The position numbers and the translations under genes were made by a program. Positions 19,958 through 39,692 of a DNA stretch of 64,000 bases are shown here, one piece after another; the stretch's first letter is position 1; each line of letters starts with the position of its first letter. The stretch comes from Microbacterium sp. KUDC0406. GTDB lineage: Bacteria; Actinomycetota; Actinomycetes; Actinomycetales; Microbacteriaceae. The DNA is taken from assembly GCF_021582875.1 (NCBI RefSeq), contig NZ_CP091138.1:372001-436000 (forward strand). The letters run 5' to 3'. Under the pieces are notes generated by a model that saw only the letters and a program-made list of their open reading frames with translations, ran no database searches and had not been told where the DNA came from.

Positions 19958-20887
19958 ATGAAGACAGTGCCGTTCGGATCCGAGACCGCCCCCGCAGTCA
20001 TCGCCGGGATGATGCGCATCCCCGACAAGACGGATGCCGAGGTCCGCGACCTCTACGACACCGCACGCGGGGCGGGCATCGACTTCTTCGACCACGCCGA
20101 CATCTACGGCGGCGCGATGCACGTCTGCGAGGACCGCTTCGCCTCCGCACTGAACCTCAGCGACGCCGAGCGCAGCGAGATCGTCATCCAGACCAAGGCC
20201 GGCATCGTGCCCGCCGACCAGATGTTCGACTTCTCGTACGACCACCTCATCACCCAGGTGGAGGGCTCGCTGAAGGCACTGCGCACCGACTACATCGATG
20301 TGCTGCTGCTGCACCGTCCCGACGCCCTCGTCGAGCCCGAGGAGGTCGCCCGTGCGTTCGACGAGCTCAGCGCCTCGGGCAAGGTGCGCGCGTTCGGCGT
20401 CTCGAACCACACGCCGCGGCAGATCGACCTGCTGCGCACGGCGGTCACCCAGCCGCTGATCGCCAACCAGCTGCAGCTGTCGATCACGCACTCGCCGATC
20501 ATCGCACAGGGCCTGTCCGCGAACATGCACGGCGCCGACCAGAGCGTCGTGCTCGACGGCGGCGGCATCGTGGAGTACTGCCGCGCAGGCGGAATCACGA
20601 TCCAGGCATGGTCGCCGTTCCAGGCCGGATTCTTCAACGGCGTCTTCCTGGACAACCCGGACTACCCCGAGCTGAACGCCGTACTCGAGCGGCTGGCCGC
20701 GAAGTACGGCGTCACCCCGCTCGGCATCGCCACGGCCTGGATCACCCGGCATCCGGCGAAGATGCAGGTCGTGCTCGGCACGACCACCCCGCAGCGCGTC
20801 GCGGACGCCGCGGCCGGAGCCGACATCGAGCTGACCCGGCCGGAGTGGTACGAGCTGTTCCGCACGGCAGGGCACATCGTCCCTTAG
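19958..20887 (+). CDS. aldo/keto reductase
   Basis: A 309-residue (beta/alpha)8 NADPH-dependent oxidoreductase. The catalytic tetrad is visible as D and Y in FFDHADIYGG, K in VIQTKAGI and H in LLLHRPDAL, and the C-terminal half has the cofactor-binding TTTPQRVADAA stretch. The pattern resembles the YdhF/YcsN branch. I start at the ATG at 19958. It is divergent from pgi and 41 bp upstream of the sulfurtransferase gene. Substrate unknown. Confidence 0.88.
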   Translation: MKTVPFGSETAPAVIAGMMRIPDKTDAEVRDLYDTARGAGIDFFDHADIYGGAMHVCEDRFASALNLSDAERSEIVIQTKAGIVPADQMFDFSYDHLITQVEGSLKALRTDYIDVLLLHRPDALVEPEEVARAFDELSASGKVRAFGVSNHTPRQIDLLRTAVTQPLIANQLQLSITHSPIIAQGLSANMHGADQSVVLDGGGIVEYCRAGGITIQAWSPFQAGFFNGVFLDNPDYPELNAVLERLAAKYGVTPLGIATAWITRHPAKMQVVLGTTTPQRVADAAAGADIELTRPEWYELFRTAGHIVP

Positions 20888-20928
20888 CTCCGCGCGGGCG
20901 CACGGATCCCACGAGAGAAGAGAACCGG

Positions 20929-21781
20929 ATGGGTACAGTCATCGGCGCCGAAGAGCTGCGCGCGCTTCTCGATTCGGGAGCGGAGGCGCGCGTCCTCGAT
21001 GCGCGCTGGAAGCTCGGGCGCGACGACGGGCGTGAGCAGTACCTCGCGGGCCACATCCCCGGCGCGGTGTACGTCGACGTCGAGGGCGAGCTGTCCCGCC
21101 ATGGGGATCCGCGCGACGGGCGGCATCCGCTTCCCTCCGATGAGGCGTTCGCCGAGGCCGTGCGTCGGTGGGGAGTGCGAGCGGGCGTGCCAGTGGTCGT
21201 CTACGACGACGCGGGGATGCTGGCATCGTCCCGCCTCTGGTGGGCGCTGCGGCGCACCGGCTTCGCCGACGTCCGCGTGCTGGACGGCGGATGGGGCGCC
21301 TGGCTGGCCGCCGGCGGCGGGGTGCAGACCGAGGAGGAGCCGGTCGAGGCGAGTGACATCCGGGTGGATGCCGCCGGAGCAGCGGGCTCCATCGACACCG
21401 ACAGCGCCGCTACCTGGCCCCGCGGCGGCGTGCTCGTCGATGTGCGCGCGGCCGAGCGGTACCGACGGTGAGACCGAGCCTCTCGATCCTGTCGCAGGCC
21501 ACGTGCCCGGCGCGGTGAACCTGCCCATCGTGCAGCTGCTCACCGATGACGGCCGATTCCGCTCCGCCGCCGACATCGCCGAGACGTTCGACCGGGTCGG
21601 TGCGACCGCCGATGTTCCGATCGCCGCATACTGCGGATCGGGTATCACCGCAGCGCAGTTCGCCCTCGCCGGTGCGCTGATCGGGCGTGAGGTGACGGTG
21701 TACCCGGGCTCGTGGAGCGCCTGGTCGAATCGGCCGGAGCTCCGGGTCGCGACCGGTCCGCAGCCTGACGGCGCGGCCTAG
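20929..21781 (+). CDS. thiosulfate/3-mercaptopyruvate sulfurtransferase, two rhodanese domains (frameshifted)
   Basis: About 283 residues with an inactive N-terminal rhodanese domain and a C-terminal domain carrying the active-site loop CGSGITA, the usual SseA-type motif. It transfers sulfur from thiosulfate or mercaptopyruvate to acceptors such as cyanide or thioredoxin. The frame breaks between ...DVRAAERYR and GETEPLDPVAGHVPGAVN; an extra A at about 21465, CCGACGG for CCGCGG, explains it. The identical change occurs in the DUF1343 gene near 36821. Confidence 0.85.
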
Positions 21782-23270: not shown

Positions 23271-24464
23271 TCAGCGCTCGATCGCGACGTAGGCGTCGAC
23301 GTTCGAGGGGGACAGCACGTGTCGCGCGACCATGATCGCCGCGCCGAGTACGGCTGCCCTGTCGCCCGCCTGCGTCTGCACGATCGCGAGATGCTGCGTC
23401 GCCAGCGGGATGGACCGGCGGTAGACGACCTCGCGCACCCCGGCGAGGAGGTGCTCTCCAGCCCGCCCGACGCTGCCGCCGAGCACGATGACGGAGGGGT
23501 TCAGGAGATTCACGACCGTGGCGAGGACCTCGCCGACGTCTCTTCCCGCCTGCCTGGTCGCCTCGATGGCGGCGATGTTCCCCACCCGGACGAGATCCAC
23601 GACGTCGGAGCTGCTCTCCGCTGCGACTCCCTGCGTGCGCAGCGTGGCGGCGATCGCCGTTCCGCTCGCGACATCCTCGAGATCGAGCCCCCCGTCCGAG
23701 GTGCGAACGCTTCCCGGCGAGTGCGGCACGCGCACGTGCCCCATGTCGCCCGCGGAGCCCTGGGCGCCGCGCTGCAGTGTGCCGCCGGTGATGATCCCCG
23801 CGCCGATACCGGTGGCGACCTTGACGAAGACGAGATCGGTGGCATCCGGAAAGCTGGTGGCCTGCTCGCCGAGGGCGAGGATGTTCACATCGTTGTCCAC
23901 GAGCACGGGGACGTCGAAGGTGCGCTGTACATACCCGGGGACGTCGAACCGGTCCCATCCGGGCATGATCGGGGGGTTGTACGGTCGGCCGGTCGAGTGC
24001 TCCACGGGGCCGGGGACGCCGATCCCGATCCCGATGAGGGGTATCTGTGGCATCCGGGAACCGGCGAGGAGCTCGCCGCCCTGGCCGACCACGTGGTCGA
24101 GCACGGCTTCCGGGCCGGCACTGATGTCCATCGGCCGCGTCGTCGAGTCGAGGATGCGTCCGGCGAGGTCGGAGACGGCGACCGTCGCGTGCGAGGCGCC
24201 GAGATCCGCCGCGAGGACGAGTCCCGCCCGGGCGTTGAAGGCCACGCGGGCCGGTGGGCGGCCGCCCGTGGACGCAGCCTCGCCGGCGGGCACGATGAGG
24301 CCGGACGCCAGCAGGGCGTCGACCCTGCTGGAGACTGTCGACCTCGCCAGGCCCGTGAGGTGGACCAGGTCCGCCTTGGTGCGGGCGTGGCCGTCGAGCA
24401 GCAGCTGGAAGATGTCGCCGGCCCCCGGTGCGGCGCCGTTCCCATACCGTTCGCCGTCGCTCAT
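23271..24464 (-). CDS. ROK-family transcriptional regulator
   Basis: About 397 residues: an N-terminal winged helix (residues ~10-75, ARTKADLVHLTGLARSTVSS) and a C-terminal ROK sugar-kinase-like domain with GIGIGVPGPVEH and LVDNDVNILALGE. The zinc-binding CxCGxxGC motif of NagC/Mlc and ROK kinases is replaced (MGHVRVPHSPG), so it is probably a non-kinase sensor. The ATG at 24464 is chosen; an in-frame ATG at 24497 is possible. It is divergent from the dehydrogenase/ABC operon with an inverted repeat between, and probably represses that operon until its sugar inducer binds. Confidence 0.88.
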   Translation of the reverse strand: MSDGERYGNGAAPGAGDIFQLLLDGHARTKADLVHLTGLARSTVSSRVDALLASGLIVPAGEAASTGGRPPARVAFNARAGLVLAADLGASHATVAVSDLAGRILDSTTRPMDISAGPEAVLDHVVGQGGELLAGSRMPQIPLIGIGIGVPGPVEHSTGRPYNPPIMPGWDRFDVPGYVQRTFDVPVLVDNDVNILALGEQATSFPDATDLVFVKVATGIGAGIITGGTLQRGAQGSAGDMGHVRVPHSPGSVRTSDGGLDLEDVASGTAIAATLRTQGVAAESSSDVVDLVRVGNIAAIEATRQAGRDVGEVLATVVNLLNPSVIVLGGSVGRAGEHLLAGVREVVYRRSIPLATQHLAIVQTQAGDRAAVLGAAIMVARHVLSPSNVDAYVAIER

Positions 24465-24514
24465 ACGGTCAGTAAACCACAGCGAGTTCTTCGACATCTG
24501 ACGCTCGACAAAAA

Positions 24515-24540
24515 ACTTTTGATGAAGAACTAGCAAAAGT
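24515..24540. promoter_or_regulatory. candidate ROK operator
   Basis: ACTTTTG (24515-24521) and CAAAAGT (24534-24540) form a 7-bp inverted repeat with a 12-bp spacer in the AT-rich gap between the ROK gene and the catabolic operon, 28 bp before the operon's first start codon. A repressor here would cover the promoter. Confidence 0.6.
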
Positions 24541-24567
24541 AGGCATGCTTGTGTCAGAATCCTCGAC

Positions 24568-25677
24568 ATGACAACGGACGTCACAGACACCGGCGTCGGA
24601 ACGATCCGATCCGGCTTCCTCGGCGGGGGCTTCATGGCCCAGGCCCACACACGAGCCGCGCGAGCAGCCGGCGCTGAGCTCTTCGCTCTGGCGAGCTCAA
24701 GCCTGCAGCGTGCAGAGGGTTCTGCAGCCGAACTGGGGGTGGAGCGCGCGACCACGCTCGACGGCCTGCTCGCCGGTGACAGCGATGTGGTGCACATCTG
24801 CACACCGAACGCGACGCATGCCCCGTTCACTCTCGCCGTCCTCGACGCGGGCAAGCACGTCATCTGCGAGAAGCCGCTGGCCACGACGCTCGTGGACGCC
24901 GAGGAGCTGGCGGCTGCGGCATCCGAGTGCGGTGTGGTCGCCGCCGTGCCCTTCGTGTACCGCTATCACCCGATGGTGCGCGAGGCGAGGGCGCGGATCC
25001 AGGCCGGCGAGCTGGGCGCTCTGCTCACGGTCGACTGCGGATACCTGCAGGACTGGATGCTGCTGCCCGAGGACGACGACTGGCGGGCGACCTCCGCCGA
25101 AGGCGGGCCATCGCGCGCCTTCGCCGACATCGGCTCGCACGTCTGCGATCTGCTCGAGTTCGTGGCGGGCGAGCGCATCGTCCGTCTCACTGCGCGCACC
25201 CGCATGGTGTACTCCGAGCGCGGCGGCCACAAGGTCAGCAACGAGGACGCCGTCAGTCTGCTCGTTGAGCTCGAGTCCGGCGCGATCGGCACGGTGCTCA
25301 TCTCGCAGATGGCAGCGGGACGCAAGAACGCACTGACGCTCGAGCTGCACGGTGCGCTCTCCAGCATGCGCTTCGACCAGCAGCGGCCGGAGGAGCTCTG
25401 GATCGGACGGCGCGGAGAGAGCTCGCACCTGTTCCGCGATCCGGACAACGCCCATCCGGGGGTGTCCCGGTTCTCACGGCTGCCCGTCGGTCACGCTCAG
25501 GGGTATCAGGATGCTTTCAACAGCTTCGTGGCCGACGCGTACGCGGCCATCCGCGGTGAGGATCCGGACGGGCTGCCCACCTTCGACGACGGCCTCCGTG
25601 CCGCCAGGCTCACCGACGCCGTGCTCCGCGCCGCCCGTGACGAGCGCTGGATCGACGTCCGCGAACTCCAGAACTGA
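24568..25677 (+). CDS. Gfo/Idh/MocA-family sugar dehydrogenase
   Basis: A 369-residue NAD(P)-dependent oxidoreductase. The N-terminal Rossmann motif is GFLGGGFMAQAHTRAARAAG (about residues 13-32), and HVICEKPLA near residue 96 provides the conserved Lys. The C-terminal alpha/beta domain begins with the VPFVYRYHPM stretch. Members act on inositols, glycosides and keto-sugars. It is the first gene of the operon under the ROK regulator and just precedes the GMC flavoenzyme. It is a good candidate for oxidising a glycoside or for reducing the released keto-sugar. Confidence 0.88.
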   Translation: MTTDVTDTGVGTIRSGFLGGGFMAQAHTRAARAAGAELFALASSSLQRAEGSAAELGVERATTLDGLLAGDSDVVHICTPNATHAPFTLAVLDAGKHVICEKPLATTLVDAEELAAAASECGVVAAVPFVYRYHPMVREARARIQAGELGALLTVDCGYLQDWMLLPEDDDWRATSAEGGPSRAFADIGSHVCDLLEFVAGERIVRLTARTRMVYSERGGHKVSNEDAVSLLVELESGAIGTVLISQMAAGRKNALTLELHGALSSMRFDQQRPEELWIGRRGESSHLFRDPDNAHPGVSRFSRLPVGHAQGYQDAFNSFVADAYAAIRGEDPDGLPTFDDGLRAARLTDAVLRAARDERWIDVRELQN

Positions 25678-25700
25678 CCACCCGGAAGGAACACCGAGAA

Positions 25701-27184
25701 ATGGCTGAGCAGTACGACCTCGTGATCGTCGGATCGGGACCGAACGGCGCGATCATCGCCGAGCAGGTCCACGCGCAGGTGCCCGAGGCGACCATCCTGG
25801 TCGTCGATGCCGGACGCGAGATCACGGGCGTCCCCGGAGAGCATCTCGTCGAGGTCGACGAGAACGCGATGAACGCCTCCTATGAGGATCTCATGCGGCG
25901 CGCCAGGCAGATCGAGTACGTCATCGGCGCGGCATCCATGAACGAGATCGAGGGCGACGCCTGGACGCCGGACTCGTCCGGGATCTTCCCTGCGGCATTC
26001 TTCGGGCACAACTTCGCGGCGTTCCCCGGCGCATCCATGGCCTGGAACATCGGCGGCATGGGCGTGCACTGGACCGCTGCCACGCCCTGGCCCTACGCCG
26101 AAGAGGTTCCCGCCTTCCTTCCGCACGGGGAGTGGGAGGCCGATCTCGAGACCGCCCGCAAGCTGCTGCGCACCTATGTCGGACCGCTCGTGGACAATCC
26201 CTTCACCGAGCCGATCTTCGCGGCGCTGCGCGAGGCGGTGCCCAGTCACGATCCCGCACGGCAGTTCGGCTACATGCCGATGGGCGGTGCTCCCCACAAG
26301 GACAGGCCGTTCGCCCGCACGGGTCCCCGCGACATCGCACCGTTCCTGTTCGACGGCACGGAGCCGAACGTCACGCTGCGCACCGGCGTCCTCGTCACCC
26401 GCCTCGAGAACGATGGGACCAGGATCACCGGAATCGCCGGCAGGGATGTGGCCACGGGGAGGAGGTCGCCGTCGACGGACGGATCGTGCTGATCGCCGGT
26501 GACGCACTGCGCACGCCCCAGTTGCTCTGGGCATCCGGCATCCGCCCTGCGGCACTGGGCGTGCGGCTCAACGAGCACGCGTCGATCGACGGCGACGTCG
26601 AGATCGACGCAGCGCGGCTCGGCCTGACCGACGCCGACATCCCCACTCCGCCAGCCGGCGAGCCGTTCATCGGCTCGTACTGGAGTCCCTCCATCGGCGC
26701 GGCGCGCCCGGCCCACGGACAGCTGATGGAGCGGGAGTTCGACGGCAAGCACGTGCTCGGCGTCGGATGGTACTGCGCGACCGAGATCCGGCCGGAGAAC
26801 CGCATCGAGTTCTCCGACGAACGCACCGATGCCGTGGGCATGCCGCACATGACCGTGCACTTCTCGTACTCCGATCCGGACCTCGCCGAGATCCGGCGCA
26901 CGATGGACGTTCAGCGCGCGGCGGCGAACGCCATCGGTGCGTTCCCGGACGGCGATTCGGAGCTGCTTCCGCCGGGGGCGTCGCTGCACTACACCGGCAC
27001 CGTCCGGATGGGACCGGAAGACGACGGGACCACCGTCGTCGACACCGACGGACGCGTCTGGGGATTCGAGAATCTCTTTCTCGCCGGCAACGGTGTCATC
27101 CCCACCGCCCTCACCTGCAACTCGACTCTGACCGGCGCCACTCTCTCCGTGCGCATCGCCCGCGCGGTGTCCGCGGCGCTCTGA
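25701..27184 (+). CDS. GMC oxidoreductase, pyranose-oxidase-like (frameshifted)
   Basis: About 495 residues. The FAD motif DLVIVGSGPNGAIIAEQV begins at residue 6. Near residue 115 NIGGMGVHWTAATPWP closely resembles the pyranose 2-oxidase segment whose Thr/His region binds FAD. The C-terminal GMC domain has SLHYTGTVRMG and a FLAGNGVIPTALTCNSTLT stretch, with His and Asn in the usual catalytic places. After ...RDVATG the frame resumes as EEVAVDGRIVLIAGDALRTP; one missing G in GGGG at 26457-26460 explains it. Related flavoenzymes oxidise sugar or glycoside C2/C3 hydroxyls; CarA of Microbacterium acts so on C-glycosides. The ABC and TIM-barrel neighbours support a glycoside substrate. Confidence 0.82.
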
Positions 27185-27225
27185 CCACCCGTACCACCCA
27201 CCCACACCACTAGGAGATGATCGCG

Positions 27226-28539
27226 ATGCACCTCTACCCTTCTTCGCGACGCCGGGCGACGATGCTCGGACTGGCTCTCGTGACGGCCGGGGCCCTCGCC
27301 CTGACCGGATGCGGACGCAGCGACGACACCGGAACCGGCGGTGACGGCGCCGGCACGACGATCGACGACAAGCCGGCCAAGGGAACAGTCGAAGTCTGGA
27401 CGCAGGGCGCCGACGGCGCCAAGCTCCCCGAGATGTTCGAGAAGTTCAAGAAAGACAATCCGGACGTCACCATCAAGATGACGCAGGTGCCCGACACCGA
27501 GTTCATCTCGAAGATGACTGCGGCGATCACAGCGGGAACCGTCCCCGACCTGATCTACGCGTTCACCGAGTCGCAGTCGGCTCTGCTGGCGACCGACGGC
27601 TTCGACCCGGTGCCGGACGGGCTGGTGAAGGCCGACGACTTCTTCCCGGCGATCTGGGACAACTCGGTGATCGACGACATCGCCTACGGCGTGCCCTGGT
27701 ACGCCTACGCCGACATGACGATCTACCGCAAGGACCTCGCCAAGAAGGCGGGCGTCGAGGCGCCGACCGACTGGGACAGCCTGCGCACCTTCGGCGAGAA
27801 GCTGAAGGCATCCGGCGTCGAATACCCGCTCGCACTGTACGTGAACTACGACTCGTACACGGCGCGCCAGCTGCTCACCTTCGCGAAGCAGAACGACGGC
27901 GGATTCATCTCAGATGATCAGAAGACCTGGACGATCAACTCCCCGGAGAACGTCGAGGCGCTGGAGTACTGGTCCGGGCTGATCAAGGACGGCCTCGCAT
28001 CGCCGGATGGTCCCGCGTTCCTGGACACGGTGTCGTGGTCGACGACGGGCAAGAACGCCGCGATCATCGACGGCGGCCCCTGGTTCATCGGCTGGTTCGA
28101 TGACGCCAACGGAAAGGGCTGGGCGGACGAGAACCTGGACCTCGCGGTGGCTCCGGTCGGCCCTGACGGCGACGAGGCGACGACGGTCGGCGGTGGCAGC
28201 TGGTTCGTGCCCCAGGACTCGGAGAACAAGGACGCGGCATGGAAGTTCGCGCGCTTCATGTCCCAGCCCGAGAACCAGGTGCAGTGGTACCAGATCTTCC
28301 ACAACATGCCGGCGCTCAAGGCCGCCTGGGATGATCCGGCCATGCAGGGCGATCGCGTCCTCGACACCGTCAAGGCGGGTCTCGAGACAGGCGTGAACCT
28401 GCCGAAGGTGTCCACCTGGACCCAGGTCGGCGATGTCATCGGCCAGCAGATCGAGAAGGTCGTCCGCGGCGGGATCTCCGCGAAGGATGCTCTCGACGAG
28501 GCGCAGAAGCAGGCTGAGTCCATCGGGACAGGTCAGTAG
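27226..28539 (+). CDS. CUT1-family sugar ABC substrate-binding lipoprotein
   Basis: About 437 residues. The start is the ATG at 27226, nine bases after AGGAG; the ATG at 27217 touches that site and is unlikely. A lipoprotein signal ends at the lipobox LALTGC (Cys about residue 28), followed by a Gly/Asp-rich linker. The mature part shows the type 1 extracellular solute-binding pattern KGTVEVWTQGADGAKLPEMF and VDIAYGVPWY-like segments. It binds a mono- or oligosaccharide, or a glycoside, for the two permeases encoded next. No matching ATPase is present; CUT1 systems in Actinobacteria often share an MsiK-type ATPase. Confidence 0.92.
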   Translation: MHLYPSSRRRATMLGLALVTAGALALTGCGRSDDTGTGGDGAGTTIDDKPAKGTVEVWTQGADGAKLPEMFEKFKKDNPDVTIKMTQVPDTEFISKMTAAITAGTVPDLIYAFTESQSALLATDGFDPVPDGLVKADDFFPAIWDNSVIDDIAYGVPWYAYADMTIYRKDLAKKAGVEAPTDWDSLRTFGEKLKASGVEYPLALYVNYDSYTARQLLTFAKQNDGGFISDDQKTWTINSPENVEALEYWSGLIKDGLASPDGPAFLDTVSWSTTGKNAAIIDGGPWFIGWFDDANGKGWADENLDLAVAPVGPDGDEATTVGGGSWFVPQDSENKDAAWKFARFMSQPENQVQWYQIFHNMPALKAAWDDPAMQGDRVLDTVKAGLETGVNLPKVSTWTQVGDVIGQQIEKVVRGGISAKDALDEAQKQAESIGTGQ

Positions 28540-28546
28540 GAGCATC

Positions 28547-29499
28547 ATGACGACCACGGCCACTCGGGCCCTCGTCACCCCGGAGGCGCCCGCGCGGCGC
28601 CCCGGGGCATCCGGAGGGCGCATGAGGGCACGAGGGCCGAAGCAGTAGCGGCCTGGCTGTTCCTGACACCGTTCCTCGCATTGTTCGCCCTGTTCACCGC
28701 GGTCCCGGCCGTCCTGGCGATCGGGGCCAGCATGACCGACATGACCGCTCGCGACATCCGCGATCCGCTGGGGGTCAACTTCACCGGGTTCGAGGCGTTC
28801 GCGAAGATCATCGGGAACCCGGGGTTCCAGAGCGCCTTCCTGAACACCGTCATGTTCGTCGTGCTCTGCGTGCCGCTGAGCATGGGGATCGGCTTCATGC
28901 TCGCCCTGATGCTGAACAACGGGATCCGCCGTCTGCGCACCTTCTTCCGTGCCGCCGCTTACGTGCCGGTGATCACGAACATCGTCGCCGCGGCGGTCAT
29001 CTGGCAGTACGCATTCTCGATCTCCGGTCCGGTGAACACCGCGTTCGCGGGGTTCGGCCTTCCGCAGCCGAACTGGCTGGGCGAGCCGGGCTGGGCCATC
29101 ACCACCGTCGTGATGATGGGCGTATGGCGCACCGCCGGAACCTGCATGATCCTCTTCCTCGCCGGCCTTCAGGCCGTGCCCGAGGAGATCTACGAGGCTG
29201 CATCCACCGACGGCGCCGGACGCTGGCGGACCCTGTGGTCGATCACCCTTCCGCTGCTGCGTCCGACCACGCTGCTGGTCACGGTGCTGCAGACCGTGTC
29301 ATTCCTGAACATCTTCGAGGAGCCCTACCTGCTGACCAAGGGCGGGCCGCTCGGCTCGACCAAGTCGATCGCGGTGTGGGTGTACGAGCAGTTCGGCTTC
29401 GGGAACATCTCCGCATCGATGGCGGGTTCCGTGCTCCTGCTGGTGCTCGTCGGCATCGTCGCCATCGTCCAGTTCAGATTGCTGAGGCCGAAACATTGA
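28547..29499 (+). CDS. sugar ABC permease, MalF/UgpA-like (frameshifted at N-terminus)
   Basis: About 317 residues, six predicted helices. The permease EAA loop is EIYEAASTDGAGRWRTLWSI near residue 215. From the ATG at 28547 (AGGAG eight bases upstream) the frame gives MTTTATRALVTPEAPARRPG and then stops, while the conserved part EAVAAWLFLTPFLALFALFT is in another frame. A single missing base between about 28590 and 28621 joins them. The stop overlaps the TTG start of the second permease. Confidence 0.83.
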
Positions 29500-30323
29500 A
29501 AACTCTGTCTCCGACGCGCCAGGCGCTCACTTACACCGCGCTGGTCGTCATCACGATCTTCATGCTCCTGCCGTTCGTGTGGGTGCTCTTCGGCTCGTTC
29601 AAGACGCAGTCCGAGTTCCTGCACAGCCCTGGGGCGTGGTTGCCCGATTCGTTCCAGATCCAGAACTACGTGCAGCTGTTCGCCGAGCGGGGCTTCGGCA
29701 ACTACATGGTCAACAGCGTCATCGTCTCGGGCGTCGCCGTCGTCGGCAACGTCGTGTTCAGCGCGATGGCCGGTTACGCCCTCGCGAAGCTGCGGTTCCG
29801 ACGGAGGGCATTGGTCTTCCCGCTCGTGATCGCCGCCATGATCGTGCCCTATGTCGCGCTCTTCGTGCCGCAGTTCATGGTGGTCGTGCAGATGGGGCTG
29901 GTGAACACACTCACCGCGATCATCCTGCCGGTGCTGGTGCTGCCGCTGAGCGTGTTCATCATGCGCCAGTTCGCCCACTCCGTTCCGTTCGAGCTCATGG
30001 AGGCGGCGAGACTCGACGGCGCGGGGGAGGCGCGGCTGTTCTTCCGCATCTTCCTGCCGCTGACCGGACCGGGGCTCGCGACCGTCGCGATCCTCTCGTT
30101 CCTGACCTCGTGGAACAACTTCCTCTGGCCGCTGGTGGTCGCGCAGTCCCAGGACACCTACACGGCGCCTGTCGGACTGTCTGTGGCATCGCAGGCGTCG
30201 AACACGATCTCGTTCGGCCTGCTGCTGGCCGGCGCGATGGTCGTGCTGCTGCCCATCCTCATCCTGTTCCTGTTCCTGCAGAAGTACTTCATCCAGGGCG
30301 TCGCGACCGCCGGCTTGAAGTGA
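29496..30323 (+). CDS. sugar ABC permease, MalG/UgpE-like
   Basis: A 275-residue six-helix permease. It starts with TTG at 29496 overlapping the stop of the first permease. The EAA loop is ELMEAARLDGAGEARLFFRI. The final part LFLFLQKYFIQGVATAGLK is the signature end of MalG-type subunits. Together with the binding protein and the preceding permease it forms a CUT1 importer; the ATPase must come from elsewhere. Confidence 0.92.
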   Translation: MKTLSPTRQALTYTALVVITIFMLLPFVWVLFGSFKTQSEFLHSPGAWLPDSFQIQNYVQLFAERGFGNYMVNSVIVSGVAVVGNVVFSAMAGYALAKLRFRRRALVFPLVIAAMIVPYVALFVPQFMVVVQMGLVNTLTAIILPVLVLPLSVFIMRQFAHSVPFELMEAARLDGAGEARLFFRIFLPLTGPGLATVAILSFLTSWNNFLWPLVVAQSQDTYTAPVGLSVASQASNTISFGLLLAGAMVVLLPILILFLFLQKYFIQGVATAGLK

Positions 30324-30351
30324 CGAAAACCCGACCCCGAAAGGTGACGAC

Positions 30352-31302
30352 GTGAAACACATCGCAGACCTCAAGTTCGCCCTCAACGCGATCCAGTGGA
30401 TCAACGTGAAGGCCGACCCTGCCGACTTCGACAGCGAGAGCCTCTGGCGCTTCGCGGACCCCGCATTCGTGGCCGAGTACCCCGGAGTGCTCGCCGCGAT
30501 CCGGGACGCCGGGTTCGACGCCACCATGCTGGAGGTGCTCGACACCCAGACGCTGCAGAACTATGCGGCGATGATCGCCGATTCCGGTCTTGCCGTCGCG
30601 CCGGGCTACGTGCAGGTGCCCCTCGCCTCCGATCACGGCGGACGGCTCGAGCGGGGGACCTTCGAGCGCATCCACTGGTTCGATGCCGTGCGACGCAAGG
30701 CGGAGGAGTCCAACTACATGGGGCTGTCCCGGATTTTCCTCGCCGCCGAGGTGGATCAGCAGGGCTCCCGTTGGCACCGCCCCGCCGTCGGCCACGACTT
30801 CTCGCAGGACCGTCTCGACGAGCTGACGGACCTCATCGACGAGGCCGTCGACGTGCTGAACGCCGAGGGCGTGCGTCCGGGGCTGCACAATCACGTCGGG
30901 ACCTGGATCGAGACCGCACAGGAGTACGAGCACGTGCTGAACAGCATCGACGTGTCCCGGCTCGGCGCGGCCTTCGACATCGGCCATCTGGAATGGGCGG
31001 GGATCGACTCCAAGGAGGCGCTCGCGACCTGGGGCGACCGGGTGCAGGATCTGCACCTCAAGGATCTCGACCTGCAGATCGCTCGTCGCACCAGGGAGGA
31101 GGGGCTCGGGTACGAGTACTCCACCGACCTCGGCCTCTATCGGGAGCCGGGACTCGGCGACCTCGATCTGCCGGGCATCCTCTCGACGCTGCACGACGAC
31201 TTCGACGGCTGGATCATCATCGAGGTGGACCGGGCGAGCATGGATCCTGCGGACAGCGCGCACCACACGGCCCGCTGGGTGGCCGAGGCGACGAAGGCCT
31301 GA
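30352..31302 (+). CDS. IolE-like TIM-barrel isomerase/dehydratase, paralogue A
   Basis: A 316-residue xylose-isomerase-like (beta/alpha)8 protein starting with GTG (AAAGG upstream). Metal-site motifs are MLEVLDTQTL near residue 60, [11 protein letters not shown] near 180, AAFDIGHLEW near 205, LHLKDLD near 232 and IIIEVDRASM near 285. The EPGLGDLDLPG stretch resembles inosose dehydratase IolE. It is about 40-45 percent identical by eye to the next gene product, so the two arose by tandem duplication. In this operon it may epimerise, isomerise or beta-eliminate a keto-sugar made by the GMC or Gfo/Idh/MocA enzyme. Confidence 0.85.
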   Translation: MKHIADLKFALNAIQWINVKADPADFDSESLWRFADPAFVAEYPGVLAAIRDAGFDATMLEVLDTQTLQNYAAMIADSGLAVAPGYVQVPLASDHGGRLERGTFERIHWFDAVRRKAEESNYMGLSRIFLAAEVDQQGSRWHRPAVGHDFSQDRLDELTDLIDEAVDVLNAEGVRPGLHNHVGTWIETAQEYEHVLNSIDVSRLGAAFDIGHLEWAGIDSKEALATWGDRVQDLHLKDLDLQIARRTREEGLGYEYSTDLGLYREPGLGDLDLPGILSTLHDDFDGWIIIEVDRASMDPADSAHHTARWVAEATKA

Positions 31303-31311
31303 GGACGCATC

Positions 31312-32271
31312 GTGCTGAGGAGGGACCAGTTCTCGCTGAACACGCTGCAGTGGATCACCGTGGGGCTCGGCGACTCGTCGGGCGAGCCCGGAGACGTCGG
31401 CTGGGAGTACGACCGCCCGAGCTTCCTCGCGAAGCAGCCCGGGGTGCTCGGCCAGGTGCGCGATGCCGGATTCCCCGGCGTCATGCTCGAGGTGCTGCCG
31501 ACGCAGACCCTGCAGACCTATGCCAGGGTGGTCGCCGACTCCGGTCTGCGACTGTCGCCCGGCTACGTGCACATCGGGCTGCCCGAGGAGTTCGGCCGGG
31601 ATCACAGGGGTGATCCCGGCGCGCACTTCCGCTGGTTCGACGGCATCCGCCGTCGTGCGGAGGAGACGCTCTACATGGGACTGGACCGTGTCTTCCTCGC
31701 GCCGGACATGGCCCCCGGCAGACCGCGCATCGACGTGTCGGCCGCTGCGGGTCACGCCTATGACCGGGCGCGCCTCGACCGGGTGGCCAACATCATCGGC
31801 GAGGCCGCGGAGGTGCTGGCCGCCGAAGGCGTCATGCCCGCGCTGCACAATCATGTCGGGACCTGGGTCGAGACCGAGGAGGAATACGAGCACGTCCTGG
31901 ATGCGGTGCCCTCGAGCATCCTCGCCGCGGGCCCCGACATCGGCCACCTCGCCTGGACGGGTGCCGACGTGGTCGCCTGGATGGCGGCGCACGCCGACCG
32001 TGTCTCCGACGTGCACGTGAAGGACATGGACCTGGCGATCGCCGCGCGGTCGCGCGCGACACCCACACCGTACTTCGACGTGATGGCGGAGAGGTTCTTC
32101 ATGGAACCCGGACTCGGCGACATCCCGATCGCTGAGAGCCTCGCCGGATTGCCGGACGGGTTCGCAGGAGACATCATCGTGGAGGTCGACAAGCCCAGCA
32201 TGGAGCCGTTCGAGAGTGCGAAGACGAGCTGGGCCTGGATCGAACGGAACTACCCGAAGGGGAACGCATGA
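31312..32271 (+). CDS. IolE-like TIM-barrel isomerase/dehydratase, paralogue B
   Basis: A 319-residue paralogue of the preceding protein, starting with GTG 9 bp after its stop. The same metal-site motifs occur: [44 protein letters not shown] and [10 protein letters not shown]. The N-terminal barrel strand opens [11 protein letters not shown], the counterpart of FALNAIQWINV in paralogue A. It overlaps the next gene by four bases (ATGA). Paralogues may form a heteromer or act on successive intermediates. Confidence 0.85.
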
Positions 32272-33275
32272 GCACGCACCCGGTCACCCTGTTCACCGGC
32301 CAGTGGGCCGACCTGCCATTCGAGGAGGTCGCCCGGCTTGCAGCATCCTGGGGCTACGACGGCCTGGAGATCGCGGCGTCCGGCGACCACCTCGACCTGA
32401 AGCGCGCCGACGAGGACGACGCCTACCTCGCGTCGCGGCTGGAGGTCCTGGACCGACACGGGCTGCGGGTGTTCGCCATCTCGAACCACCTGGCCGGCCA
32501 GGCCGTCTGCGATGCGCCGATCGACTTCCGGCATCAGGCGATCCTGCGCGATTACGTGTGGGGCGACGGCGAGGCCGAAGGCGTGCGGCAGCGCGCCGCG
32601 GAGGACATGCAGCGCGCCGCACGGGTGGCCCGCAAACTCGGAGTGGACACCGTCGTAGGCTTCACCGGATCCTCGATCTGGCCCTACGTCGCGATGTTCC
32701 CGCCGGTACCGGCCGCGGTGATCGAGGCCGGCTTCGAGGACTTCGCCGCGCGCTGGCATCCGATCCTCGACGTCTTCGACGGCGAGGGCGTGCGCTTCGC
32801 GTATGAGGTGCATCCCTCTGAGATCGCCTATGACTACTGGAGCTCCGTGCGCGCCCTGGAAGCGATCGACCACCGGAGGGCGTTCGGTTTCAACTGGGAC
32901 CCCTCGCACATGATGTGGCAGAACGTCGACCCGGTCGGGTTCATCTGGGACTTCCAGGACCGCATCTACCACGTGGACTGCAAGGACACCCGGATGCGGC
33001 CGCGGAACGGCCGCGCCGGCGTGCTCGGCTCGCATCTGCCCTGGGGCGACCCGCGGCGGGGCTGGGACTTCGTGTCCACCGGCCACGGCGACGTGCCATG
33101 GGAGGACTCGTTCCGCGCCCTGGACGCGATCGGCTACACCGGCCCGATCTCGATCGAGTGGGAGGATGCCGGCATGGACCGGCTGCACGGCGCCGCGCAG
33201 GCTGTCGAGTACGTCCGTTCGCTGCTCTGGCCTCCGCCCGCCGCGTCGTTCGACGCGGCCTTCAGCAACCAGTGA
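32268..33275 (+). CDS. TIM-barrel sugar isomerase/epimerase of a second type
   Basis: A 335-residue xylose-isomerase-like protein distinct from the two preceding paralogues. It opens [20 protein letters not shown]; the metal ligands are suggested by FAYEVHPSE near residue 182, FNWDPSHM near 210, YHVDCKD near 240 and [10 protein letters not shown] near 290. This form resembles epimerase-like proteins found with 3-keto-glycoside systems (YcjR, LgdB, CarB types); the match is from memory. Translationally coupled to paralogue B. Confidence 0.82.
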
Positions 33276-33276
33276 C

Positions 33277-34539
33277 GTGTTCGGAGACGCGCTGCGGGCG
33301 CGCTTCTCAGCCGCCGCTCTGACGAGGTCGTTCAGCTCGCTGCGTGTTCAGGCGTACCGGCGCTGGAGTCTGGCGCAGTTCCTCTCGGGATCAGGCGGGG
33401 CGGCTGCGCTGGTCGCCGTCGCCTGGCTGGTCGTCGAACTCGGCGGCGACGGCCTCGCGCTCGGGATCGTCACCGCCTCGATGATGCTTCCCACCCTGGT
33501 CCTCGGTCCGTTCGCCGGAGCGCTCGTCGATCGCTTCCCCCGCAGGTCCGTGCTGATCCTCACCGCGGCGGCGCAGCTGGCCGTGGCCGCGGCGCTGGCC
33601 GTGCTCACCCTCGGTGGCTGGGTACAACTGTGGTCGCTGTTCGCGCTCTCCCTCGCCCAGGGGCTCGCGTTCGCCATAGACAACCCCGCCAGGCAGCTGC
33701 TGGTCATGGACGTCGTCGGCAGGGAACGGATGACCAGCGCGGTGAGCATGAACGAAGTGGTCATCAACGGCTCCCGCGTGTTCGGACCCGCCGTGGCCGG
33801 ATCGCTGCTGGTGTTCGCCGATCCCGGCTGGTGCTTCGTGTTCAATGCCCTCGTGTTCGTGCCGTCGATACTCGTGCTGCGGTCGTTGCGGGTCGGCCCG
33901 ATGTCGAATGCCGCCGCCACGGGCGCGCGCCCGCAGGTCGAGGCATCCGCCGTTCAGACGACCGAGCGCGCACCGGCGCCGTGGCGCTTCGCGGCGGGCA
34001 CGGCGCCGATCCGCTCGACGCTGCTGCTCGCCGTGTGCGCGGCCGCGGCCTTCAACATCCCCGTGGTGATGCCCCTGATGGTCTCCGACGTCTTCGGCGC
34101 CGGCGGGGGGACGTACGGCGCGCTCGCGGTCGCCTTCGGACTCGGGGCGCTTCCGGGAGCGGTGTTCTCGGCGACGGGCCCCGTGATGCCTCGTAGCGAG
34201 GAGGTGCGCGCGCTCGCCGTGGCGCTGGCGCTCGCGGTCGTCCTCTCGGCGGCGGCGCCCACGATCGCCGTACTGTTCGTCGGCACGGCGATCGTGGGGG
34301 CGATGTCGATGTGGTTCATCGCACGGGCGAACGCTTTCGTCATGCTCACCGCGCCCGTCGCGATCCGCGGACGGGTGATGGGCATCTGGGCGATGGCGTT
34401 GCCCGGTTCGACGGTCGTGACCGGACTCGCCGTGGGGGCGCTGACGGATTTCGCGGGTCCGCGTGCGGCCTATGCAGCGATCGGCGTGCTGACCGCCGTG
34501 GTGGCGCTGACGTCGTGGCGGGCGCTGCGCTCCACCTGA
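33277..34539 (+). CDS. MFS transporter (EntS-like)
   Basis: A 420-residue polytopic protein with about twelve helices. The GTG at 33277, two bases after the preceding stop, gives MFGDALRARFSAAALTRSF. The MFS loop motif is GPFAGALVDRFPRRSVL near residue 75, and SLAQGLAFAIDNPARQLLVM follows, which is typical of EntS-type MFS_3 exporters. As last gene of the catabolic operon it may export an aglycone or by-product. A short inverted repeat follows at 34577. Confidence 0.85.
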   Translation: MFGDALRARFSAAALTRSFSSLRVQAYRRWSLAQFLSGSGGAAALVAVAWLVVELGGDGLALGIVTASMMLPTLVLGPFAGALVDRFPRRSVLILTAAAQLAVAAALAVLTLGGWVQLWSLFALSLAQGLAFAIDNPARQLLVMDVVGRERMTSAVSMNEVVINGSRVFGPAVAGSLLVFADPGWCFVFNALVFVPSILVLRSLRVGPMSNAAATGARPQVEASAVQTTERAPAPWRFAAGTAPIRSTLLLAVCAAAAFNIPVVMPLMVSDVFGAGGGTYGALAVAFGLGALPGAVFSATGPVMPRSEEVRALAVALALAVVLSAAAPTIAVLFVGTAIVGAMSMWFIARANAFVMLTAPVAIRGRVMGIWAMALPGSTVVTGLAVGALTDFAGPRAAYAAIGVLTAVVALTSWRALRST

Positions 34540-34624: not shown

Positions 34625-36403
34625 TCAGCGACGGACTTCCGTGAACCCGTCCGCGGTGAACGCGCCGCGATCCGCTTCGCCGTTCAGGACCACGCGCCGA
34701 CCGTCGCGCAGCATCACGCCGTCGACGAAGGCGCCACGGCCCTGCGTGTTGGCATCGGTCGTGTACCGCCAGCGCAGCGCGTCGGCGCCATCCGGCAGAC
34801 GCGCCTCTGCCTGACCCCAGTCGCGGTTGCCCTGGTTGTCGAAGGTGCCGTCGGTCTCGACGACCCGTCCGTGACCGCCGTGACCGAACCGCACCGTGTA
34901 CGGCACGAGCGACCAGGTCTCACCGCCGTCCGATGACGCCTCGAGCGCGAAGACGTCCGTCGGCTCCAGATCGGCGAACACGTCGAACGACAGCGACAGG
35001 GCGTGGCGGCTCGAGGGCACCGCCACCGAGAGCGTGTGCTCCGCGGCGTCCTGCGTTCCGCCGAACCACTCCGTCCTGCCCTTCTGCGGCGAGACGGACA
35101 TCGCCTCGGCAAGGCCCTGCGCGATCGCCCTGCGCGACGGGTTGTTCGAGCCCCAGTCACGGCTCGGGTGCACCCGGTTGGTCAGCAGCACAGCGAAGGA
35201 GCGCGAGGCGAAGTCGATCACGAGTGAGGTGCCGGTGTAACCGGTGTGCCCCGCCGTCGAACCCGCCGCGAGCCCTCCCATGTACCAGAGCTGGTTCAGC
35301 TCGAAGCCCAGGCCGTGCGAGTCGCCGGGGAACTCGGTGTTCTCATCGGTGATCATCGCCCTGACGGACCTCTCGGACAGGATCCGCTTGCCACCGTACG
35401 CTCCGCCGTTCAGCATCGTCTGCGCGAGGATCGCCATGTCGCGGGCGGTGGAGAACACACCGGCGTGACCGGCCACCCCGCCCAGGCTCCAGGCGTTCTC
35501 GTCGTGCACCGAGCCCCAGACCATCCCGCGAGCGGGGGAGACCTGGTACTCGGTGGCGGCGATGCGCGGCTTCTTGCTCGCATCAGGGTTGTAACCGGTG
35601 TCGACCATCTTCAGCGGACCGGTGATGCCCTTCGCGACCAGCACGTCGAGCGACTTCCCGGTGAGCCTCTCCGCCAGCACACCCAGTGAGATCAGGTTCA
35701 GATCGGAGTACTCGTACACCGTTCCCGGCGGATTCTTCACCGGGACGTCCATCACCGCCTTGATGCGCGACGCCTTGTCGGGGTAGTCGCTCCACAGCGG
35801 CAGCCACGACACCAGACCCGAGGTGTGCGTGAGCATCTGCCTGATCGTGATGGTCTCCTTGCCACCGTTCGCGAACTCCGGAAGATAGCTGCCGTAGGTC
35901 GCGTCGAGGTCGACGAGGCCCTTCTCGACCAGCTGCATGATCACGATCGACGTGAACAGCTTGCTCACCGACGCCATGTCGTAGATGGTGTCCTGCTTCG
36001 CAGCGATGCGCTGGCTTTCGGGCAGCTTGGTCGTGGCATCCGCATAGAGCAGCGCGTAGCCGGTGGCGTGCTCGCTGACGACGCGCCCCTGATGGCCCAT
36101 CACGCCGACGGCCGAGGCGTACATCGGCTTGACCGCGGGATCAGCGGGCGCGGCGAAGCCGTCGATCGCCCGCCACGCCGCGTCGATCGGCGCCGGGTCG
36201 AGACCCAGGGCCTTCGGCGTGCTGTTCCGCAGAGTCGTGCTGCTCTTCATGAATCCCTCGTACGGCGCATCGAACTGCCCGGTGCGCCCGTGGTCGTCGT
36301 GACCGCCGTGTGCATAGGCGGGAGTCAGTGCTCCGGCTGCGAGCAGTCCGGCGGTCACGAGACCGGCGAGCGCGATCCCGAGCCTCCTCGTTCGGCGCAT
36401 CAT
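34625..36403 (-). CDS. secreted beta-lactamase-fold serine hydrolase (YbbE-like)
   Basis: A 592-residue exported protein. The signal peptide ends near residue 31 (LTPAYA), and the mature start is His-rich (HGGHDDHG). The serine beta-lactamase/DD-peptidase domain has S145-V-S-K148 as SxxK and GHTGYTG near residue 390 for the third box. The last ~150 residues form a beta-rich accessory domain. The gene overlaps the DUF1343 gene (ATGA) and follows a NagZ gene; the order nagZ-namZ-ybbE is known in Bacillus, where the three act on muropeptide recycling. Here it may trim peptides from the wall sugar. Confidence 0.82.
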   Translation of the reverse strand: MMRRTRRLGIALAGLVTAGLLAAGALTPAYAHGGHDDHGRTGQFDAPYEGFMKSSTTLRNSTPKALGLDPAPIDAAWRAIDGFAAPADPAVKPMYASAVGVMGHQGRVVSEHATGYALLYADATTKLPESQRIAAKQDTIYDMASVSKLFTSIVIMQLVEKGLVDLDATYGSYLPEFANGGKETITIRQMLTHTSGLVSWLPLWSDYPDKASRIKAVMDVPVKNPPGTVYEYSDLNLISLGVLAERLTGKSLDVLVAKGITGPLKMVDTGYNPDASKKPRIAATEYQVSPARGMVWGSVHDENAWSLGGVAGHAGVFSTARDMAILAQTMLNGGAYGGKRILSERSVRAMITDENTEFPGDSHGLGFELNQLWYMGGLAAGSTAGHTGYTGTSLVIDFASRSFAVLLTNRVHPSRDWGSNNPSRRAIAQGLAEAMSVSPQKGRTEWFGGTQDAAEHTLSVAVPSSRHALSLSFDVFADLEPTDVFALEASSDGGETWSLVPYTVRFGHGGHGRVVETDGTFDNQGNRDWGQAEARLPDGADALRWRYTTDANTQGRGAFVDGVMLRDGRRVVLNGEADRGAFTADGFTEVRR

Positions 36404-37693
36404 CGCGGACCCCCGTACAGCAGGAAGCGGCGCGTGTCGTTGCGGAACTTCCGCAGCTCCGGCTGCCAGGCCGCGACGATCTTCTCGGCGGATGCGCCGG
36501 CCTCGAGCTGCTCCTGGAACCGGCCCGAGCCGGTGAGCAGACCGATCCAGCGGCCGCCGTCACCGCGCCAGTCGAACTCGGGGTAGAGCCGGCGCGCCTC
36601 GACGAGCATGTGCGTCGCGACGGTGATCGCATCGACCTTCTCGGCATCCAGGATGTGCACCTGCACCCCGCCGCACACCTCATTCGCGTTCTTCGAGAAC
36701 GTCGGCACGAAGTACGCCTCGCGGAACTCCACTCCGGCGAGCTTCCTCGCGTTCAGCGCCTCCGCCCAGCGGTGGTCGATGTACGGCGCGCCGATCAGCT
36801 CGAAGGGGCGGGTGGTGCCGTCGGCCCTCCGACCAGTTCGTCGCCTCGACCATTCCGGTCCCCGGGTACAGCGTCGCCGTCTGCGGGGTGGGCATGTTCG
36901 GCGACGGCGGGATCCAGCGGTCGGCCTGATCGGGGCCGACCATCTCGCGCCGCCAGCCGCTGGCCTTCACCACCTGCAGATCCTTCAGCTTCTGCACGCC
37001 GGCCCGCTCCATGAACGTGGCATTGAAGTACTGCGCGAGCTCGCCGACCGTCATGCCGTGCTGCTGAGCGATCTCCAGCAGTCCGACTCCCGAGGTGTAC
37101 CCCTGCTGCAGCACCGGCCCTCGGGCGCGCCCGCCGAGAGGATTGGGCCGGTCCAGGACGACGAAGCGCACTCCGCCCACCTGGGATGCGGCCTGCATCG
37201 CCGTCCACATCGTCCAGATGTAGGTGTAGAAGCGCGCGCCCACATCCCGGATGTCGAAGACGACGGTGTCGATGCCGGCGGTGGTGAAGAACCCCGCCAG
37301 CTTCGCGGCCGTCGCACCGTACGCGTCGTACACGGTGACGCCGGTGCGCGGATCGACCGAGGTCTCCTCGGCCTCACCGGCCTGTGCGGTGCCGCGGAAC
37401 CCGTGCTCGGGGCCGAACACGGCCTTCAGGTCCACGTCGTGGGCGACCATGTCGTCGACGATGCTGGTGAAATCCTCCAGTACTCCGGTGGGGTTGGTGA
37501 TCACACCGACCTTGCGGCCGGAGAAGATGCGCCACCGGTCGGCCGCCGCGATGTCGGCGCCGGTGCGCAGCCGGCTCCCGCCCCTGTGGGTCACTGCGGT
37601 GCTGCCCGCTGCGGATCCGGCGGCCGCGACGCCCGCCGCGGTCGCCGCGGCCACGCCGGCGGCGCCGAACAGTCCTCGCCTGCTGATGTTCAT
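36400..37693 (-). CDS. namZ: NamZ-like exo-beta-N-acetylmuramidase, DUF1343 (frameshifted)
   Basis: About 431 residues. A twin-arginine type signal (SRRGLFGAAGVAAATAAGV) marks export. The DUF1343 pattern is clear: VFGPEHGFRGTAQAGE, VVFDIRDVGARFYTYIWTM and LDRPNPLGG. After ...ATNWSEGR the frame resumes as GTTRPFELIGAPYIDHRWA; an extra base at about 36821 (CCGACGG for CCGCGG) explains it. NamZ removes terminal N-acetylmuramic acid from peptidoglycan fragments in concert with NagZ. The stop overlaps the YbbE-like start. Confidence 0.87.
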
Positions 37694-37718
37694 GTCTGTT
37701 CTCCTCATCGTTCCGTGG

Positions 37719-39584: not shown

Positions 39585-39692
39585 GACGTCACTCCTCATC
39601 GAGTTTCGTCCCCAGCTCCGCCCACCCCAGGGCGTCGCCAGCCTAGCCCCCTCCGACCGATTCTGAACAGGGGGATCACAAAATACGGGTGA

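What the first reader, a model, noticed from the sequence alone, without database searches (positions are those of the whole stretch)
23271..34539. ROK-controlled operon with GMC flavoenzyme, Gfo/Idh/MocA dehydrogenase, three TIM-barrel isomerases and a sugar importer: candidate oxidative glycoside catabolic system
The gene set suggests import of a glycoside or rare sugar, oxidation at C2 or C3 by the pyranose-oxidase-like GMC enzyme or the dehydrogenase, cleavage or rearrangement by the IolE/YcjR-like barrels, and export of an aglycone. Related components are known separately: CarA-type flavoenzymes acting on C-glycosides in Microbacterium, Lgd proteins for levoglucosan, Dgp proteins for C-glycosides. 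I see no DUF6379 or DUF1080 partner, so the cleavage step may be new. Family assignments follow from the sequence; pathway order and substrate are inference.
Basis: partly seen in the sequence, partly recalled or inferred. Interest (0 to 1): 0.75.

Follow-up and report, generated by a model that had tools for sequence, protein, structure and literature searches.

The report
Oxidase-lyase operon cleaving sugar glycosides
A Microbacterium operon most likely imports a plant-type glycoside and removes its sugar by oxidation and elimination instead of hydrolysis, using an unstudied IolE-like barrel where known relatives use a two-subunit lyase; the steps are inferred from genes, not shown by experiment.

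Summary
The gene set is real: ROK repressor, Gfo/Idh/MocA oxidoreductase, GMC flavoenzyme, importer without its own ATPase gene, three PF01261 barrels (B1-B3) and an MFS protein. Two genes, the GMC enzyme and permease 1, are frame-broken in this sequence; a rhodanese and NamZ nearby look broken too, so assembly error is likelier than decay. The GMC frame is open in 17 of 18 relatives that share the operon. The GMC lies in the pyranose/glycoside-3-oxidase space, nearer Streptomyces canus oxidases than CarA-type ones. B3 resembles AtHYD (2-hydroxy-3-keto-glucal hydratase) almost end to end. B1/B2 are IolE-like with an H-x-H, D, H, E site like that reported for the eliminase AtOGE. The genome has no CarC/DgpB-type subunit. 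Of 295 Microbacterium genomes, all 30 with this GMC also have a B1-type barrel; of 80 named loci, 77 pair the GMC with B1 or a second IolE-like barrel, never both. Best reading: import, C3 oxidation (GMC), beta-elimination (B1/B2), hydration (B3), reduction to glucose (Gfo). A palindrome kept before the operon in relatives is the likely ROK operator. A new variant of known non-hydrolytic deglycosylation; substrate and B1 activity are untested.

The parts
23271..24464 (-). ROK-family transcriptional regulator, divergent from the operon
   Evidence: PF00480 E 2.8e-48; orthologs 60-81% identical in the same place in relatives
24516..24539 (.). likely ROK operator, perfect palindrome CTTTTG-N12-CAAAAG
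   Evidence: only site in the 3.6-Mb genome, but the backwards control pattern also has one site, so one site is what chance gives genome-wide; no match in 100 shuffles of the window; right half kept in 18 of 18 aligned loci (window included), left half exact in 13 of 18
24568..25677 (+). Gfo/Idh/MocA oxidoreductase; proposed 3-keto-glucose reductase
   Evidence: PF01408 and PF22725; below LevoglcsnDh and IolG cut-offs
25701..27184 (+). GMC flavoenzyme of the pyranose-oxidase/C-glycoside-oxidase space, frame-broken near 26.46 kb; proposed glycoside 3-oxidase
   Evidence: two pieces cover profile 4-502 of 505; C piece 196 bits to pyranose oxidase 8qve, 174.5 to 7dve, 162.1 to 7qf8; open in 17 of 18 other window-type loci
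27217..28539 (+). sugar-binding lipoprotein of an ABC importer (CUT1 type)
   Evidence: PF01547 E 7.7e-37
28548..29499 (+). ABC permease 1; N-terminal part in another frame (break near 28.6 kb)
   Evidence: PF00528; N-termini of nine relatives compared
29502..30323 (+). ABC permease 2 (exact start uncertain)
   Evidence: 80-88% identical in place in window-type relatives (pieces of 82 and 92% in L139)
30352..31302 (+). B1, IolE-like barrel; proposed 3-keto-glycoside beta-eliminase
31312..32271 (+). B2, paralogue of B1 (45% identical), optional in relatives; second eliminase or partner
   Evidence: same site residues in 8 of 8 B2 rows; present in 11 of 19 window-type genomes
32268..33275 (+). 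B3, proposed 2-hydroxy-3-keto-glucal hydratase
   Evidence: profile 588 bits to 2zds (SCO6571) and 154 bits over positions 10-329 to AtHYD 8ro4; ExH, D, H, E in 16 of 16
33250..34539 (+). MFS transporter (start uncertain), optional in relatives; possible exporter of aglycone
   Evidence: PF05977/PF07690; a like gene in 12 of 19 window-type genomes

Best explanation
The operon encodes non-hydrolytic deglycosylation. A ROK repressor on a palindromic site holds the operon off until its sugar ligand appears. An ABC importer (ATPase encoded elsewhere) brings in an intact glycoside. The cytosolic GMC flavoenzyme oxidises the sugar at C3 with O2. B1, with or without its paralogue B2, is a metal-dependent IolE-type lyase that removes the aglycone by beta-elimination, leaving 2-hydroxy-3-keto-glucal. 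B3 adds water to give 3-keto-glucose. The Gfo/Idh/MocA enzyme reduces this with NAD(P)H to glucose. The MFS protein may export the aglycone. Shown here: gene content, order, co-occurrence, homology and site residues. Inferred: every reaction, the sugar and the aglycone. In this genome sequence the oxidase and one permease are frame-broken, most likely by assembly error.
For: (1) GMC lies in the POx/CGOx space, whose studied monomeric members prefer glycosides; PMC10807413 (abstract and passages), PMC11673046 (passages), which also names 7DVE as MtCarA and 7QF8 as PsG3Ox. (2) All 30 of 295 Microbacterium genomes with the GMC (E<=1e-60) have a B1-type match (E<=1e-30; 33 genomes); in G440 that match is B2 (overlap P about 5e-38). 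(3) In 80 named GMC loci, 28 carry B1 and 49 a second IolE-like barrel, none both; 77 carry one. (4) B1/B2 keep H-x-H, D, H, E, as reported for AtOGE (His132/His134, Asp163, His189, Glu233; PMC10628242). (5) B3 matches AtHYD almost end to end; CarA-type clusters (four loci) carry a B3 66-67% identical plus a Gfo, and CGDB subunits in L064, L065 and L066, so B3 and Gfo fit steps after cleavage. (6) No CGDB in the own genome nor in any of 18 window-type Microbacterium genomes. (7) Operator kept in 18 aligned loci.
Against: No reaction is shown. The nearest relative of B1 in sequence and fold is IolE, an inosose dehydratase; AtOGE was not recognised among the hits. The second barrel has H-T-E where B1 has H-N-H, and its model is only about 1 Z unit nearer to IolE than to other barrels, so equal function is not certain. 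Type-2 operons (for example L071-L077) show no Gfo or B3 near the oxidase at the cut-offs used. B1 and CGDB are not significantly exclusive across the genus (odds ratio 0.56, p 0.38; 5 genomes have both). Some 3-keto O-glycosides lose the aglycone spontaneously (PMC12724307). The oxidase frame is broken here. The operator pattern is no rarer in the genome than its backwards control (one site each).
Confidence: 0.55

Rival explanations
1. Oxidase-started cyclitol catabolism: the GMC enzyme oxidises an inositol-like cyclitol or a derivative of it, and B1/B2 dehydrate the resulting inosose as IolE does.
Against: B1, B2, B3 and Gfo fall far below the IolE and IolG cut-offs; no other iol-type gene was recognised in the operon; studied POx/CGOx enzymes act on sugars and pyranosides; B3 matches a keto-glucal hydratase.
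Confidence: 0.15
2. The Gfo/Idh/MocA enzyme starts the pathway as a 3-dehydrogenase, as LgdA or DgpA does, and the GMC enzyme is accessory or acts on a side product.
For: Gfo has 162-171 bits to the levoglucosan dehydrogenase family and 141 bits to 6a3f, which I recall as a levoglucosan dehydrogenase (the best hit there, 4h3v, is unnamed).
Against: The oxidase-barrel pair occurs without a nearby Gfo in type-2 loci, whereas all 30 GMC genomes keep a B1-type barrel.
Confidence: 0.12
3. The locus is decaying in this strain: the oxidase and permease breaks are real, so the pathway is dead here.
For: Two of the operon genes are frame-broken.
Against: Rhodanese and NamZ domains nearby also lie in two frames each (not compared with relatives); genome completeness is 96.12% although it is one contig, while all 13 other one-contig genomes listed have 99-100%; the C piece is still 90% identical to a relative.
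Confidence: 0.2
4. B1 is an epimerase or isomerase acting after cleavage (YcjR-like) and the aglycone leaves spontaneously from the 3-keto O-glycoside.
Against: Only weak sequence similarity to YcjR (E 0.038); B1 tracks the oxidase, not Gfo or B3.
Confidence: 0.12

Closest known systems
Agrobacterium tumefaciens GlycDH / AtOGE / AtHYD / Gfo operon (PMC10628242)
   Same: Oxidation, elimination, hydration, reduction; B3 is an almost end-to-end relative of AtHYD; B1 shares the H-x-H, D, H, E site pattern reported for AtOGE.
   Different: Oxygen-dependent GMC oxidase instead of GlycDH; the eliminase candidate is IolE-like (316 aa); ROK control and an ABC importer.
CarA-CarBC, PurA-PurBC and PsG3Ox C-glycoside clusters of soil actinobacteria
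   Same: Related GMC glycoside oxidase; in four Microbacterium CarA-type loci a B3 66-67% identical and a Gfo sit alongside.
   Different: L064 carries CarB-like barrels and CGDB beta subunits; the window genome has no CGDB, and B1 shows no profile similarity to the CarB-like barrels (probability 0.3%; only 2 rows on the CarB side).
Levoglucosan LgdA-LgdB1-LgdB2-LgdC pathway (PMC7676230)
   Same: Four-step logic with two barrels and two oxidoreductases.
   Different: Gfo is below the LgdA cut-off (171 of 650 bits); the window has a GMC oxidase.
IolE inosose dehydratase
   Same: Fold and metal-site pattern of B1.
   Different: B1 scores 95.9 bits against a cut-off of 290; partner genes differ.
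Streptomyces canus oxidase loci (L185, L187, L203)
   Same: ROK, importer, GMC and an IolE-like barrel.
   Different: A different barrel (H-T-E) and a guanine-deaminase-like gene; no Gfo or B3 nearby in 46 of the 49 ScBar loci that also have deaminase, binding protein and ROK genes.

Membership tests
Pyranose oxidase / C-glycoside 3-oxidase (GMC, POx/CGOx) | sequence placement with POx/CGOx | tested here: met
   8qve 196 bits, 7dve 174.5, 7qf8 162.1; tree
Pyranose oxidase / C-glycoside 3-oxidase (GMC, POx/CGOx) | catalytic His/Asn pair and clade motif by the flavin | tested here: met
   SLHYTGT and TCNST in the C piece, GVHWT in the N piece; H and N invariant in alignment A4; GVHW is the clade III motif in PMC10807413
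Pyranose oxidase / C-glycoside 3-oxidase (GMC, POx/CGOx) | one open reading frame | tested here: not met
   two frames in this sequence; open in 17 of 18 other window-type loci
Pyranose oxidase / C-glycoside 3-oxidase (GMC, POx/CGOx) | oxidation of sugars or glycosides at C2 or C3 | not testable with these tools
   needs enzyme assay
C-glycoside deglycosidase (CarBC/DgpBC) | beta subunit PF19906 | tested here: not met
   0 matches in the own genome; 68 of 295 genus genomes have it
C-glycoside deglycosidase (CarBC/DgpBC) | alpha subunit related to CarB | tested here: inconclusive
   B1/B2 profile against two CarB-like barrels: probability 0.3%; only two rows on one side, so a shallow test
IolE / IolG inositol catabolism | score over the NCBIfam cut-off | tested here: not met
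   95.9, 72.6, 36.4 against 290; 103.5 against 355
Levoglucosan dehydrogenase LgdA | score over the NCBIfam cut-off | tested here: not met
   171.2 against 650
2-hydroxy-3-keto-glucal hydratase (AtHYD-like), B3 | end-to-end homology and site residues | tested here: met
   154 bits, positions 10-329 of 334; ExH, D, H, E in 16 of 16
2-hydroxy-3-keto-glucal hydratase (AtHYD-like), B3 | hydratase activity | not testable with these tools
   needs enzyme assay
O-glycoside eliminase AtOGE, B1 | sequence homology to AtOGE | tested here: inconclusive
   AtOGE was not recognised among PDB hits; no AtOGE sequence was at hand for a direct comparison
O-glycoside eliminase AtOGE, B1 | H-x-H, D, H, E metal and acid/base residues | tested here: met
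   35 of 35 B1 and 8 of 8 B2 rows, compared with residues named in PMC10628242

The most novel reading that the evidence does not exclude
B1/B2 found a new family of 3-keto-glycoside eliminases built on the IolE scaffold, and an IolE-like barrel, not CarBC, is the standard partner of the S. canus-side half of the glycoside-oxidase tree. In the Streptomyces and Rathayibacter/Agreia branch the added guanine-deaminase-like gene would process a nitrogen-base aglycone, so the natural substrates there would be glycosides of amino-pyrimidines or purines and not the flavone C-glycosides tested so far.
Probability: 0.25. Interest if true: 0.75.

Novelty: new variant of a known kind. Interest (0 to 1): 0.55.

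Why it matters
The side of the actinobacterial glycoside-oxidase tree that holds S. canus has no recognised cleavage partner in the texts I saw, and the three S. canus genomes checked here hold no CGDB subunit. The IolE-like barrel near the oxidase in 77 of 80 named loci is a concrete, expressible candidate. If it is the eliminase, it supplies the missing step, a non-hydrolytic way to remove sugars, and a route to find natural substrates by testing oxidase and barrel together.
Full report
OBSERVATION. The window lies at C1:372001-436000 of a one-contig 3.6-Mb genome. Most named relatives sharing the operon are Microbacterium; I call the own genus Microbacterium on that ground. The gene order is ROK(-), Gfo, GMC, binding protein, two permeases, B1, B2, B3, MFS. 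No ATPase gene was recognised in the operon, as is usual for CUT1 importers that share one (recalled).

BROKEN FRAMES. The GMC gene is covered by two frames: 25704-26468 matches profile 4-257 and 26447-27181 matches profile 251-502 of 505. Permease 1 changes frame near 28.6 kb; nine relatives were compared. In the same region two rhodanese domains (in 20608-21468 and 20999-21778) and the N and C domains of NamZ (in 36683-37954 and 36403-36966) lie in two frames each; these two were not compared with relatives. Of 18 other window-type loci, 17 have an open GMC frame of 492-500 aa; L139 (G566, 76% complete), where most operon genes are split, has it in two frames. Own completeness is 96.12% in one contig; all 13 other one-contig genomes listed have 99-100%. 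Probably four breaks in about 17 kb point to assembly error more than to decay, but resequencing is needed.

WHO HAS THE OPERON. Of 295 Microbacterium genomes, 18 have the window-type operon with B1 or B2, GMC, Gfo and B3, and G120 from another genus has it too. In the 18 other genomes B3 is 88-93% identical (in L139 in pieces of 92 and 76%); B2 is present in 11 of all 19 and an MFS gene like the window's in 12 of 19; G440 has B2 but no close B1. The GMC (E<=1e-60) is in 30 of 295 genomes and a B1-type match (E<=1e-30) in 33; all 30 GMC genomes have one (overlap P about 5e-38). The three others are G555 (an oxidase 44% identical lies within 6 kb of B1 in L154, not on the 1e-60 list) and G508 and G580 (35-36% matches, probably other barrels).

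THE OXIDASE. The C piece matches pyranose oxidase 8qve (196 bits), 7dve (174.5) and 7qf8 (162.1); PMC11673046 names 7DVE as MtCarA and 7QF8 as PsG3Ox. A tree of 58 proteins puts the window type with Leifsonia in one group (15 rows, 100/99), beside a larger group (36 rows, 97/77) with S. canus and other actinobacteria; four Microbacterium CarA-type oxidases and three others (L067-L069) fall outside both (100/100). The tool warns of long branches, so deeper order is unsure. The GVHW motif is the one PMC10807413 gives for clade III. Whether an S. canus locus here is the studied ScPOx protein itself was not checked.

NOT CarBC, NOT IolE, NOT Lgd. PF19906 has no match in the own genome, 0 of 18 in window-type genomes, and 68 of 295 in the genus. 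IolE, IolG and LgdA cut-offs are not reached. Against a simple replacement story: across the genus B1 and CGDB are not significantly exclusive (5 genomes have both; odds ratio 0.56, p 0.38).

CarA-TYPE CLUSTERS SHARE THE LATER STEPS. Locus L064 has, in order, importer genes, GMC, CGDB, two CarB-like barrels, a SnoaL-like gene, a second CGDB, a Gfo and a B3 66% identical to the window's. L065, L066 and L079 show the same GMC, Gfo and B3 spacing, and CGDB lies in L065 and L066 as well. B3 and Gfo therefore travel with two different cleavage modules, as expected of enzymes that process the released sugar; the Gfo proteins there are only 33-34% identical to the window's.

WIDER SURVEY. A scan of named genomes gave 435 relatives of the GMC, of which the best 80 were kept. 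Of these 80, 28 have B1 or B2 (profile score 150 or more), 49 a second barrel here called ScBar, 0 both, 3 neither (one of the three is a contig of 4.4 kb); 53 have a deaminase gene; 0 have CarB/CarC-like genes by home-made profiles. PF19906 was searched in 46 of these 80 genomes: 3 matches, none in the three S. canus genomes. ScBar is related to B1 (hhalign 96.4%) and matches IolE best by sequence, but has H-T-E in place of H-N-H, and its model is only about 1 Z unit nearer IolE (25.4) than other barrels (24.1). The deaminase resembles 2g84 (137 bits) and guanine deaminases (36 bits); that 2g84 is the guanine/ammeline deaminase NE0047 is recalled.

REGULATION. A perfect palindrome CTTTTG-N12-CAAAAG at 24516-24539 is the only one in the genome; the backwards control pattern also has one site, so its mere presence is not remarkable. 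Its place and conservation are: it was in none of 100 shuffles of the window and is kept between ROK and Gfo in the 18 aligned loci, window included (right half 18 of 18, left half 13 of 18 exact). That ROK binds it is inferred.

MECHANISM. Import, C3 oxidation, elimination, hydration, reduction, as proposed for A. tumefaciens and worked out for levoglucosan in Bacillus smithii (PMC7676230, passages). Homology and linkage support the assignment; no reaction, sugar or aglycone is shown.

LITERATURE. Nothing I saw in the searches describes the oxidase/IolE-like barrel pair. PMC9659204, on the S. canus enzyme, was only searched for six terms and holds none of operon, gene cluster, neighborhood, isomerase, deaminase or physiological role. 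PMC12724307 was read in parts 1-4 of 5. PMC8563793, PMC10646112 and PMC12062775 were seen as passages.

VERDICT. A real, conserved operon; a new variant of a known kind of pathway, with an untested but specific candidate for the cleavage step.

Noticed in passing
L187 8992-12098; L203 8992-12073 (Streptomyces canus): S. canus-type oxidase operons carry a guanine-deaminase-like gene (PF00383) between oxidase and barrel (deaminase in 53 of 80 named loci), hinting at a nitrogen-base aglycone; vicine-like glucosides come to mind (recalled, untested).
   Followed up: partly
window 34625-39599: A serine-hydrolase-like gene, a frame-split NamZ and a gene that looks like GH3 NagZ: probably a peptidoglycan-recycling cluster next to the operon; only NamZ was checked by profile.
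   Followed up: partly
window 20608-21778: Two rhodanese domains lying in two overlapping frames, probably one broken sulfurtransferase.
   Followed up: partly
L139 (G566): Most operon genes are split into overlapping frames (ROK, Gfo, GMC, permease 2, B2, B3, MFS), another error-rich assembly.
   Followed up: partly
L136 3871-5651: One relative (G440) lacks a close B1 but has B2 plus two other PF01261 barrels downstream of B3.
   Followed up: partly
L128 6181-7428: One relative (G386) has a different MFS transporter between B1 and B3, where others have B2.
   Followed up: no
L146-L148: A third operon type: oxidase divergent from importer-B1-Gfo, in three Microbacterium genomes.
   Followed up: partly
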